Source: Candidatus Poribacteria bacterium (GTDB lineage: Bacteria; Poribacteria; WGA-4E; WGA-3G). Taken from it: DNA of 64,000 bases. A program made the translations under genes and the position numbers. This document shows, piece after piece, positions 58,051-62,957 of the stretch. The stretch covers positions 1 through 64,000 of the forward strand of contig JAJECK010000144.1 in assembly GCA_022822085.1 (NCBI GenBank), given 5' to 3'. Within the stretch, counting starts at the first letter, position 1; each line of letters starts with the position of its first letter. The notes beneath the pieces are model-generated. The model was given only the letters and a program-made list of their open reading frames with translations. It was not told the origin of the DNA and did no database searches.

Positions 58051-58361
58051 TTTGTTGTCTCATTTCTTTTTCAATATTGGATATAGTATAGCATATTCCT
58101 GCATCACAATTCAAGCAGCAAAGTTATCCTTCATAGAACCATACAATTATCGATTTTTGCTAACAAGTGTCATCCGAAAAACAGTATTCTATTAAAATTA
58201 TGCACCCATTTCTTCCCAATTCGCGACTATACTATATATTATGAAGCGATTAATTAGACGTTTCTTCAGGTTTCCAGCATTCCTACCCAGAAACGTCCTT
58301 TCCATATATTCACAGATTATACTATAATTATATGTCAATCAAGCCTTTCCGGAGATGTCAG

Positions 58362-61163
58362 ATGAATACAGACGATGTTGTGTTGATCCAATCCATACTT
58401 GCGGGTGATGATGCTGCCTTTGCGAGTTTAGTAAGCAAATACCAGGAGCAGGTTCACGCATACACGTACCGGAAAGTTGGCGATTTCCACATTGCTGAAG
58501 ACATTACACAAGATACGTTTTTTGAAGTGTATCAGAATCTGGATAAGCTGAGAGACCCGACTAAGTTTTCAACTTGGCTCTTTGCGATTGCGAATTACCT
58601 CTGTATAGCGTGGTTTCGAAAAAATCACTCAATGTCCGAATTATTACGTGAAACCTATACAGTGAAAACAGAGACAGATTCATATTCACGGTATGTGGCT
58701 TTGGAAAATGAGAGGGATGCTGCTGAAGCACAACGCGAATTAGTCCAACAGATGCTATCAAAACTGAAGGAAAGCGATCAACAGTTAATCACACTCCACT
58801 ATTTTAAAGAGATGACATCCGCTGAGATAAGTCGCTATTTAGGCATCCCCCAAAATACGATTAAGAGTCGGCTGCGACGCGCAAAACAAAGGTTAAAACA
58901 GGACGATTTATTAGTCCAAGGGACAAAACATAGTTCTATTGAAAAGGGACACAGTTCACAAGGAGAAATTAGCATGGCAGATAAAATGAGTTCAGATATA
59001 CTCAAAATTAAGTCCTTCTCAGACCGATCACGAATGCAACTTTCCGTAGATGGAGAGTGGCTTGCCTATGTAGTAGTTGACCCCGACCGAAAATCATCGT
59101 TCGAACAACAGACTGATGAATTTTCATTTCATCAACTGACTGGCGCATTGATAGAAAATCATAGTCAGGAAATATGGGTTACCAACCTCAAAACGAAGAA
59201 AACATATCAACTTGGAGCAGATGAAGGGGTTGACTGGGCACCTCGCTGGTCTCCAGATGGAAATCACTTAGCGTTCTTTTCTGACAGAATGGGGACACCC
59301 CATCTTTGGGTTTGGGATAGGGTCGGAAATGAACTGCGGCAGGTTAGCGAAAAACCGATTACTGCAACACACGGTCTTGAAGTCCCGCAGTGGACTTCGG
59401 ATGGAAAACATATCATCACAAAGTTATGTCCCGAAGATATGGACCTTCCCACAATTATCTCAAACAAAACGATTCCACAAGCGATAAACGTTTGGCATAC
59501 GGATACGGATGAAGAGTCTTCTTTAGATGAAGATTTAGACCAATTCGTGTGGATCAAAGGAGATTTAGGTGTCTTCAACGTTGACACGGGTGATGTGCAA
59601 GTTCTCGCACGAGGCTTGTTTACGAGAAAAATTATACTCTCCCCAGATAATACTGCAGTTGCCGTGCTCAATATAATACGAGGAAGGGAGTTGACATCTC
59701 AAGAAACCCTTTATGAGTTGCTATTAGTTCCTTTAGATGGAACGCCTGTCAGAAGTTTGGCGACAAATCTCATCGAAAGTACGCTATTCGTGAGTTGGTC
59801 ACCAGACAGTAAGTATCTGGTATATGCGCAATCGGATGGATTGTTTATTGTTTCAGTTCAAGATGGTGAACAGAAGAACTTGACTGCCGAGCTTACAGAG
59901 AAACTGCGTTTTTACGCACGTCCGTTATGGCGACCATCAGGAGAGTCGTTTTTCTGCGGCATCGACGGAAATATATGGGAATTCGCAGCAGACGGTAGCA
60001 GTGCCCGGAAACTGACAGAAGAATTGAAGAAACACATCATGGGTATTGTCGCGAAAGTAAATACCCACGTCGTTTGGCAGTCAAGCGATGCACAGTCTAT
60101 CTGCGTCCAGACTCATGATCCAGAAACGAAGAAAGATGGTTTTTATTTGATAAACAGTGCGGAGGCACGTGCTACTTGCCTGTTTGAAGAACCAATTAGC
60201 ATAACCCGTCAAATCGCAGACGAATACGATTTAAAGGTTGTCAGTGACGACACACAGATTGTCTATAGAGCGCAAAATGCGACGCATCCAGAGGAAATCT
60301 GGATGTGTAATACAGACTCAGGAGAACGACAGCAGGTGTCCAATCTCAATCCGCATCTGCGCGACTTACAATTTGGTGAGGTCCGTTTCGTCGAATCACA
60401 AAGAGAGAACGGCGAGCGTTTACGTGGTGTTTTGATGCTACCTGCCAACTATGAGGAAGGCAAAAAGTATCCTCTGATTACGTGGGTCTGTCCGGGCAGG
60501 CACTTGTCAATGTATATTTATAGTTTTGGGTTAGATAAATTTGTCATGAACTTTCAACTCCTTGCTGCACGTGGTTTTGCCGTGCTTGGTGTTGATGTGC
60601 CGTCAAGATCCAGCGAATCGTTGAAAAAATTGTCCGAATATGTGCTGCCTGCGGTAGACAAAGTGATTGAAATGGGGATCGCCGATGCGGATCGATTGGG
60701 AATAACGGGGTACGGTCACGGTGGATACTCCACAGCCGGACTGCTTACACAAACCAACCGTTTCAAAGCCGCAGTTTGCGGGGGCGGTTTTTATAATTTG
60801 ACCAGAATCTACGGGAATCTTACGAAACTGGGAAGAAGTCTTGGTATTAAATGGATAGAAGATAAGGATCGTATGGGTATAGGTGGTTCGCTCTGGGAAG
60901 AACGCCAACGATATATCGACAGTTCACCGCTTTTTCACTTAGATAAGGTCGAAACACCTGTTCTAATCTATTGTGGTGAAGGGTTTAATGGTGATGATTA
61001 CACGCAATCTGGGGAGCTTTTCTCTGGATTGCGCAGGCTTAAAAAGAAAGCGACTTTTGCGTGGTATCGTGGTGAAGGGCATCTCGTGAGGTATTGGCGA
61101 CCTGAACACCGCGCTGATTGTTGGGAACGTGTCATCGGTTGGTTTGAAAAGCATCTGAATTAA
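58362..61163 (+). CDS. ECF sigma factor fused to S9 (acylaminoacyl/prolyl-oligopeptidase-like) protein with TolB-type propeller
   Basis: N-terminal 'DDAAFASLVSKYQEQVHAYTYRKVGDFHIAEDITQDTFFEVYQNL' and region 4 'LSDQQLITLHYFKEMTSAEISRYLGIPQNTIKSRLRRAKQRL'-type; C-terminal 'DRLGITGYGHGGYSTAGLL', 'RGEGHLVRYW'; ORF track start 58332. Confidence 0.85.
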   Translation: MNTDDVVLIQSILAGDDAAFASLVSKYQEQVHAYTYRKVGDFHIAEDITQDTFFEVYQNLDKLRDPTKFSTWLFAIANYLCIAWFRKNHSMSELLRETYTVKTETDSYSRYVALENERDAAEAQRELVQQMLSKLKESDQQLITLHYFKEMTSAEISRYLGIPQNTIKSRLRRAKQRLKQDDLLVQGTKHSSIEKGHSSQGEISMADKMSSDILKIKSFSDRSRMQLSVDGEWLAYVVVDPDRKSSFEQQTDEFSFHQLTGALIENHSQEIWVTNLKTKKTYQLGADEGVDWAPRWSPDGNHLAFFSDRMGTPHLWVWDRVGNELRQVSEKPITATHGLEVPQWTSDGKHIITKLCPEDMDLPTIISNKTIPQAINVWHTDTDEESSLDEDLDQFVWIKGDLGVFNVDTGDVQVLARGLFTRKIILSPDNTAVAVLNIIRGRELTSQETLYELLLVPLDGTPVRSLATNLIESTLFVSWSPDSKYLVYAQSDGLFIVSVQDGEQKNLTAELTEKLRFYARPLWRPSGESFFCGIDGNIWEFAADGSSARKLTEELKKHIMGIVAKVNTHVVWQSSDAQSICVQTHDPETKKDGFYLINSAEARATCLFEEPISITRQIADEYDLKVVSDDTQIVYRAQNATHPEEIWMCNTDSGERQQVSNLNPHLRDLQFGEVRFVESQRENGERLRGVLMLPANYEEGKKYPLITWVCPGRHLSMYIYSFGLDKFVMNFQLLAARGFAVLGVDVPSRSSESLKKLSEYVLPAVDKVIEMGIADADRLGITGYGHGGYSTAGLLTQTNRFKAAVCGGGFYNLTRIYGNLTKLGRSLGIKWIEDKDRMGIGGSLWEERQRYIDSSPLFHLDKVETPVLIYCGEGFNGDDYTQSGELFSGLRRLKKKATFAWYRGEGHLVRYWRPEHRADCWERVIGWFEKHLN
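58961..58976 (+). promoter_or_regulatory. Putative internal ribosome binding site and start for the peptidase moiety
   Basis: aggag at 58961-58965, 8-nt spacer, ATG 58974-58976 in the same frame as the fused ORF (MADKMSSDILKIKSF). Confidence 0.55.
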
Positions 61164-62352: not shown

Positions 62353-62957
62353 ATGCAAAAAACAGTGATTTTGATTTTAGCGATTGGATTAGCGATGTGT
62401 GTTATTTCCCAAGACACGTTCACACAAGACACAAAAGAGGGGCAAATGACTCACAAAACATTAACGATTCCGGATATTCTTAAAATTAAGTCGTTTTCAT
62501 CCCGTTCACGATTGCAGATCTCCCATGACAGAGAGTTTCTTGCCTATGTTGTGCAAGACCCTCATCACAAGTCATCGTTCCAAGATAAACCACCGAATAC
62601 TTCCATGTTTCTACCGACCAGAGTATTCATTGAACATCATAGTAGTGCCATCTGGGTTACCAATATCAGAACAAAGGAAACTTTTTAACCCGGTTCAGAT
62701 GAAGGAGGTTGACTGGACACCACGGTGGTCTCCGGATGGACGCTACTTAGCATTCTATTCTGACCGAATAGGCGCACCACAACTTTGGTTTTGATGCACC
62801 ACAATGGACATCGGACGGAAAACATCTCATTACAAAGTTACGTCCAGAAGATATAGATATTTCCAGACTTATCTCACCCGATACCAATCCACAAACGATA
62901 AACGTTTGGGAAATTGAAACAGATGAACAGCTTCCTTTAATAGCACAGTTCACATAG
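62353..62957 (+). pseudogene. Decayed S9-peptidase/propeller paralog (frameshift, internal deletion, truncated)
   Basis: 'DILKIKSFSSRSRLQISHDREFLAYVVQDPHHKSSF...IWVTNIRTKETF*' then other frames 'VDWTPRWSPDGRYLAFYSDRIGAPQLWF*' and 'FDAPQWTSDGKHLITKLRPEDIDISRLIS...INVWEIETDEQL', colinear with 58974-59530. Confidence 0.88.

What the first reader, a model, noticed from the sequence alone, without database searches (positions are those of the whole stretch)
58362..61163. ECF sigma factor fused in frame to an S9-peptidase-like propeller/hydrolase protein
A single open frame encodes a sigma region 2 + region 4 domain (about 200 aa) followed directly by a TolB-like propeller and alpha/beta hydrolase domain, with no stop between them. 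Sigma factors with C-terminal extensions are known, but I do not recall this partner as a standard architecture. A peptidase-shaped sensor physically linked to a sigma factor would be an unusual one-component regulator.
Basis: partly seen in the sequence, partly recalled or inferred. Interest (0 to 1): 0.75.

Follow-up and report, generated by a model that had tools for sequence, protein, structure and literature searches.

The report
Sigma factor fused to dead peptidase
In sponge-associated Poribacteria a gene-switching protein (an ECF sigma factor) is joined in one reading frame to a peptidase-shaped domain that has lost its catalytic serine, and a conserved ribosome-binding site inside the gene suggests that the dead peptidase is also made on its own; the same layout recurs with many other partner proteins across the genome.

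Summary
Window 58362-61163 (+) is one open frame of 933 aa: sigma-70 regions 2 and 4, a PD40/DPPIV_N propeller and an S9 alpha/beta-hydrolase. It is neither an assembly error nor unique. I found 16 loci, all Candidatus Poribacteria, 13 intact, one on a closed chromosome. Purifying selection acts on both halves (dN/dS about 0.2-0.3), while the linker is neutral (about 1.0).

Three additions change the reading. (1) In every fused copy the S9 nucleophile serine is glycine (16/16); in every readable free homologue it is serine (70/70). The 'peptidase' is a pseudo-peptidase, sister to a serine-bearing one with a signal peptide. (2) The junction contains an invariant AAGGAGAA-N6-ATG at exactly the native start of free S9 proteins, so a free S9 form is probably made too. 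This layout recurs in most of the roughly 50 sigma fusions of the genome. (3) An ECF-type promoter lies upstream, the only such hit in the window, so autoregulation is likely.

Best explanation: a cytosolic, autoregulated one-component sigma factor whose dead peptidase domain senses a ligand, co-produced with the free sensor domain. The sensing step is inferred. [quoted passage not shown]

The parts
58201..58231 (+). predicted ECF-type promoter: -35 TGCACCCATTT, -10 CGCGACTATA (probable autoregulation)
   Evidence: Conserved in orthologue upstream regions. Motif in 49 of 129 sigma upstream regions against 0.05 expected in shuffles, total length fixed at 26-28 nt, only hit in the whole window. 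Consensus match, not tested.
58351..58355 (+). ribosome-binding site of the sigma start (GGAGA)
   Evidence: GGAG invariant in the 14 orthologues aligned
58362..61163 (+). single ORF, 933 aa: sigma factor - linker - S9-like pseudo-peptidase
58428..58625 (+). Sigma70_r2 (PF04542)
   Evidence: 5.7e-15
58737..58895 (+). Sigma70_r4_2 (PF08281)
   Evidence: 4.5e-15
58896..58959 (+). fast-evolving linker (median dN/dS 1.02)
58960..58965 (+). internal Shine-Dalgarno AAGGAG, 8 nt before ATG 58974
   Evidence: AAGGAGAA invariant in 13/13 intact orthologues beside a neutrally evolving linker; predicted unpaired
58974..58976 (+). internal in-frame ATG; corresponds to the start Met of free S9 homologues without signal peptide; a free 729-aa form is predicted from here
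58974..60371 (+). PD40/DPPIV_N-type beta-propeller
60372..61160 (+). alpha/beta-hydrolase (Peptidase_S9) domain, catalytically dead
60714..60716 (+). codon GGT (Gly) at the nucleophile position: GYGHGGY in place of GxSxGGY
62353..62957 (+). decayed free S9 paralogue with a signal-peptide-like N-terminus (stops and frame changes between fragments); intact copies exist in relatives, e.g. L185:8475-10784

Best explanation
This gene encodes an autoregulated cytosolic ECF sigma factor permanently joined to a non-catalytic S9 peptidase-like sensor. The RNA polymerase-binding sigma half is always made tethered to the dead peptidase half, because no stop lies between them. The dead half has kept its propeller/hydrolase fold but has no nucleophile and no signal peptide, and most likely binds a peptide-like ligand without cutting it. 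Binding (or loss of binding) would change whether sigma regions 2 and 4 can engage RNA polymerase. A conserved internal ribosome-binding site makes a second product, the free dead-peptidase domain, which could titrate the ligand or mix with the fusion as a subunit. Active sigma would raise its own expression from the promoter at 58201. Shown: one ORF, conservation, selection on both halves, serine loss tied to fusion, no predicted transmembrane helix. Strongly indicated by sequence: internal start, autoregulatory promoter. Inferred: ligand, direction of control, role of the free form.
For: Single ORF and domains. 16 loci, all Poribacteria. One origin: fused clade 100/100 and sister to signal-peptide-bearing S9. 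Serine-to-glycine in 16/16 fused, serine in 70/70 free. dN/dS 0.18 sigma, 0.28 propeller, 0.23 hydrolase, 1.02 linker. AAGGAGAA-N6-ATG invariant at the junction. SD+ATG enriched about 11-fold at the junctions of sigma fusions of this genome and relatives: 57 in 3840 codons against 58 in 43330. SD codons conserved beyond the amino acids: GGA 36/37 against 34% background, although the next codon is Glu, Asp or Gly. Promoter motif in 49/129 sigma upstream regions against 0.05 expected. No transmembrane segment in the window protein, unlike most paralogues, which have one near residue 220-250. S9 fold confirmed against the PDB.
Against: No expression data. An SD and ATG do not prove initiation, and a promoter consensus does not prove autoregulation. 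The fused clade is one evolutionary event, so the serine-loss association counts as a single change on one stem branch, maintained since. The sigma half is modelled poorly (pLDDT about 30-60), so no interface between the halves could be examined. Gene neighbours are only partly conserved, so no ligand or target is suggested by context.
Confidence: 0.5

Rival explanations
1. The gene is in effect an in-frame operon. The two halves were neighbouring genes whose separating stop was lost, the S9 protein is mainly translated from its own start, and the tether has no regulatory role of its own.
For: The junction Met matches the native start of free S9 proteins and keeps a ribosome-binding site; the linker evolves neutrally; most sigma fusions in the genome keep such a site. 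In G011/L197 the sigma half is frameshifted while the S9 half and its start are intact.
Against: No stop has reappeared in a neutral linker in 13 intact orthologues over substantial divergence (median dS about 0.4-0.5). Only fused copies lost the serine, so the partner changed its role once joined.
Confidence: 0.28
2. The dead S9 domain acts as a built-in anti-sigma factor, released by proteolysis, as for IutY-type fusions.
For: In the most common paralogue class the partner begins with a short cytosolic stretch, a transmembrane helix and a large outer propeller, like a sigma/anti-sigma pair joined in frame. Proteolytic release from a fused anti-sigma factor is known for IutY (PMC8999054).
Against: The window protein has no transmembrane segment, and no anti-sigma domain was matched.
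Confidence: 0.12
3. Assembly or sequencing artefact joining two genes.
For: The window is from a multi-contig draft genome (158 contigs).
Against: 13 intact orthologues from independent assemblies, including a closed chromosome.
Confidence: 0.01

Closest known systems
[quoted passage not shown]
   Same: sigma regions 2 and 4 followed by an extension thought to replace an anti-sigma factor; at least 26 ECF groups have such extensions (PMC8999054)
   Different: no S9 partner among the examples described in the section read; the extension here is about 730 aa, derives from a peptidase and has its own internal start
IutY (ECF243) and ECF48/52/53, sigma fused to a membrane anti-sigma part
   Same: one polypeptide carries sigma and regulator; the transmembrane paralogues in this genome look similar in layout
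   Different: the window protein is soluble by prediction and has no anti-sigma domain match
S9 prolyl oligopeptidase family (8wt1 S9 carboxypeptidase, D. radiodurans S9 peptidase 5yzm-5yzo, PH0594 4hxe-4hxg)
   Same: propeller plus alpha/beta-hydrolase fold
   Different: nucleophile serine replaced by glycine; sigma factor in place of a signal peptide
Bacterial genes with an in-frame internal start giving a long and a short product (CheA-L/S, ClpB, IF2; from general knowledge)
   Same: internal SD and ATG within one frame
   Different: here the start sits between two unrelated domains and recurs across a whole sigma family; expression not shown

Membership tests
ECF (group 4) sigma factor | sigma-70 region 2 and region 4.2 without regions 1.1 and 3 | tested here: met
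   PF04542 and PF08281 over cut-off, no other sigma regions; TIGR02937 sigma70-ECF 95.8 bits against cut-off 42.9
ECF (group 4) sigma factor | binds RNA polymerase and directs an ECF-type promoter | not testable with these tools
   indirect only: conserved ECF-like promoter upstream of the gene and of its paralogues
ECF sigma factor with regulatory C-terminal extension | extension in the same polypeptide, conserved with the sigma domain | tested here: met
   13 intact orthologues; dN/dS 0.18 to 0.28 in both halves
ECF sigma factor with regulatory C-terminal extension | extension controls sigma activity | not testable with these tools
   needs an experiment
Named ECF phylogenetic group (numbered ECF groups) | score against the published ECF group models | not tested
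   those models are not among the libraries on hand
S9 peptidase family | propeller plus alpha/beta-hydrolase fold | tested here: met
S9 peptidase family | nucleophile serine in GxSxGG | tested here: not met
   Gly in all fused copies. So it is an S9-like pseudo-peptidase, not a peptidase.
S9 peptidase family | catalytic Asp and His | tested here: inconclusive
   His column kept; the Asp column cannot be assigned firmly in this subfamily
Gene with internal in-frame translation start | conserved SD and start codon within the ORF | tested here: met
Gene with internal in-frame translation start | short product observed | not testable with these tools
   no proteomics or ribosome profiling on hand

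The most novel reading that the evidence does not exclude
Poribacteria use a general, still-evolving sensor platform. ECF sigma cassettes carrying a built-in internal ribosome-binding site capture copies of the cell's own proteins (a dead S9 peptidase here; DnaN, FtsZ, FtsZ plus DnaE, and PurC elsewhere) and turn them into sensor or decoy domains of sigma factors. Each gene yields both the tethered sigma and the free partner. One version is immune-like, with captured housekeeping proteins serving as bait for phage or host effectors, comparable in logic to integrated decoys.
Probability: 0.2. Interest if true: 0.9.

Novelty: new variant of a known kind. Interest (0 to 1): 0.62.

Why it matters
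ECF sigma factors with fused regulators are known, but a catalytically dead peptidase as the fused sensor, with a conserved internal start that also frees it, is a testable new way to build a one-component sigma switch. The same layout in about 50 genes of one genome makes Poribacteria a natural collection of sigma-sensor fusions. It would let one ask directly how new regulators arise from captured genes.

Tried and rejected
Artefact: rejected by 13 intact orthologues and a closed chromosome. Active one-component peptidase: rejected by the serine loss in all fused copies. Membrane-tethered sensor: rejected for this protein, no transmembrane segment, though most paralogues have one. SD at the junction by chance or by amino-acid constraint: rejected by the enrichment and codon tests. 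Conserved gene neighbourhood as a clue to function: an oxidoreductase (Gfo/Idh/MocA by my reading) and a further S9 copy recur downstream in only some relatives, so no conclusion. The structure model cannot show the sigma-S9 interface (sigma pLDDT about 30-60). The RNA fold at the internal start is unremarkable, with the SD and ATG unpaired. Literature: no paper in the library combines Poribacteria with ECF and sigma factor. A first strict promoter pattern missed the window's own site because of its different spacing within the -35 element; the broader one found it.

Full report
What is there. The window carries one uninterrupted frame from an ATG at 58332, or better 58362, to the stop at 61161-61163. 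Pfam gives sigma region 2, sigma region 4, PD40/DPPIV_N propeller and Peptidase_S9, all over cut-off and in one frame. The start at 58362 is right: the upstream ATG is not conserved, whereas MKTDDV with a GGAG site is. The protein is then 933 aa.

It is real. A search of 59 relatives gave full-length orthologues at 75-88% identity, and a scan of species genomes gave 15 more loci, all titled Candidatus or uncultured Poribacteria, one on a closed 6.66-Mb chromosome. Of the 16 loci (window included), 13 are intact. One has a TAG in the S9 part, one a frameshift in the sigma part, and one ends early. Some loci are the same genomes under different names. Between intact copies the median dN/dS is 0.18 for sigma, 0.28 for the propeller, 0.23 for the hydrolase and 1.02 for the linker. 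Both halves are therefore kept by selection and the linker is not.

The partner is a pseudo-peptidase. The S9 nucleophile motif GxSxGG reads GYGHGG in the window and GYG(H/Y/S)GG in the orthologues. All 16 fused copies have Gly (one of them read from the downstream piece of the broken gene in L186). All 70 free homologues in which the site can be read have Ser, across Poribacteria and several other phyla. The PDB alignment puts the same Gly opposite the active Ser of an S9 peptidase, and the predicted fold matches S9 peptidases. The tree shows the fused copies as one clade (100/100), sister to free copies with a signal peptide (N-termini). So one event, or a short series of events, joined the domain to a sigma factor and lost the nucleophile. 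Because it is one clade, the perfect association is one historical change, maintained since, and not 16 independent ones. Substrate-bound S514A mutants of the Deinococcus S9 peptidase (6ikg) show that an S9 domain without its serine can still hold a peptide, which makes a binding sensor plausible.

The junction is a translation start. AAGGAGAA at 58960-58967 is followed six bases later by the ATG at 58974. The eight bases are identical in all 13 intact orthologues, although the linker next to them evolves freely. This Met is the native start of free S9 proteins that lack a signal peptide. Across the sigma fusions of this genome and a few relatives, an ATG with an SD is about 11 times more frequent at the junction than elsewhere in the same frames (57 in 3840 codons against 58 in 43330). 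In the class to which the window belongs, the Gly codon of the SD is GGA in 36 of 37 genes (background 34%), and the next codon starts with G whether it encodes Glu, Asp or Gly. In the transmembrane class AAG and GAG are preferred against background. The RNA signal, and not only the peptide, is what is conserved. These are paralogues, so the counts are not fully independent; the median conserved column in the same alignments has a top-codon share of only 0.56-0.68.

Autoregulation is likely. An ECF-like promoter, TGCACCCATTT - CGCGACTATA, lies at 58201-58231. The motif occurs in 49 of 129 sigma upstream regions against 0.05 in shuffles, with a length of 26-28 nt although the pattern allowed a wider range, and only once in the 64-kb window. 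A genome-wide scan gives 56 hits against 22 for the reversed control, and about a dozen of the hits lie just upstream of sigma genes.

It is part of a system. The genome has 76 Sigma70_r2 matches. About 50 have C-terminal partners: 41 form one cluster of propeller proteins (WD40, Sortilin/YCF48-like among those scanned), most of them with a transmembrane helix 20-50 residues after the sigma domain. Others carry FtsZ, DnaN, crystallin or unnamed domains. Relatives add complete DnaN, PurC, HTH_20, and sigma plus FtsZ plus DNA polymerase III alpha. In the genomes searched, DnaN, FtsZ and PurC also exist as ordinary separate genes, so the fused ones are extra copies. One is recent: the PurC part in G034 is 96.3% identical over 901 bp to the chromosomal purC and spans only its coding sequence. 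The partner set is still changing. More distant families of the phylum also have long sigma frames, with fewer sigma matches per genome in seven of the eight genomes searched.

How it most likely works. Translation from 58362 always yields sigma tethered to the dead peptidase; translation from 58974 would yield the dead peptidase alone. The tethered domain is soluble by prediction and has no catalytic serine, so the simplest role is to bind a ligand and change how regions 2 and 4 meet RNA polymerase. The free form would compete for ligand or join the fusion as a subunit (S9 proteins often form oligomers; general knowledge). The main rival is an in-frame operon in which the tether has no role. 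A stop codon placed in the linker separates the two.

Compared with what is known. A review lists at least 26 ECF groups with extensions, acting by conformational change, protein interaction or proteolysis, with SnoaL, TPR, WD40, Cys-rich and anti-sigma-like extensions (PMC8999054). No S9 partner is named in the section read. Membership in a numbered ECF group was not tested. It works like an ECF factor with an extension; it is not an S9 peptidase, because the defining serine was tested and is absent.

Limits. All evidence is from sequence. The genomes are mostly metagenome assemblies. Expression, binding and activity were not tested.

Noticed in passing
L171:4281-8369 (G035, contig of 5.7 Mb); same-length frame in G034 (L160): 1363-aa frame: sigma factor + full-length FtsZ + DNA polymerase III alpha (PHP, NTPase, finger domains; cut short). 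A sigma-FtsZ-DnaE fusion; the frame of equal length in a second species was matched for FtsZ only.
   Followed up: partly
L132:1501-3318 (-), L107:5321-7075, L110:634-2388; L084 in the window's genome (broken by a frameshift): Sigma factor fused to a complete extra DnaN sliding clamp with an SD+ATG at the junction; recalls clamp-linked sigma in phage T4 late transcription (from memory).
   Followed up: partly
L106:460-2298, L174:1817-3073 (-), L173:1975-3792, L172:15529-16764, L180:4047-5300 (-): Sigma factor fused to extra FtsZ copies, several reduced to the GTPase half without the T7 loop; an ordinary ftsZ exists separately.
   Followed up: partly
L170:4144-5739 and L169:2860-3760 (G034): Sigma factor fused to a PurC copy 96.3% identical to the chromosomal purC over the coding sequence only: a recent capture, at the place where a relative (L183) has a sigma-HTH_20 gene.
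   Followed up: partly
window 62353-62957: Decayed free S9 paralogue with signal-peptide-like start, two genes downstream of the fusion; intact copies exist in relatives.
   Followed up: yes
L077, L079, L081, L083, L088, L089: Tandem arrays of two or more sigma-propeller genes (with or without a transmembrane helix) on the same contig; possible recombination hot spots.
   Followed up: no
G000:C68:13103-13130 (L285): A strong copy of the ECF-like promoter about 1.35 kb upstream of a second copy next to a sigma gene; possible non-sigma target of this sigma family.
   Followed up: no
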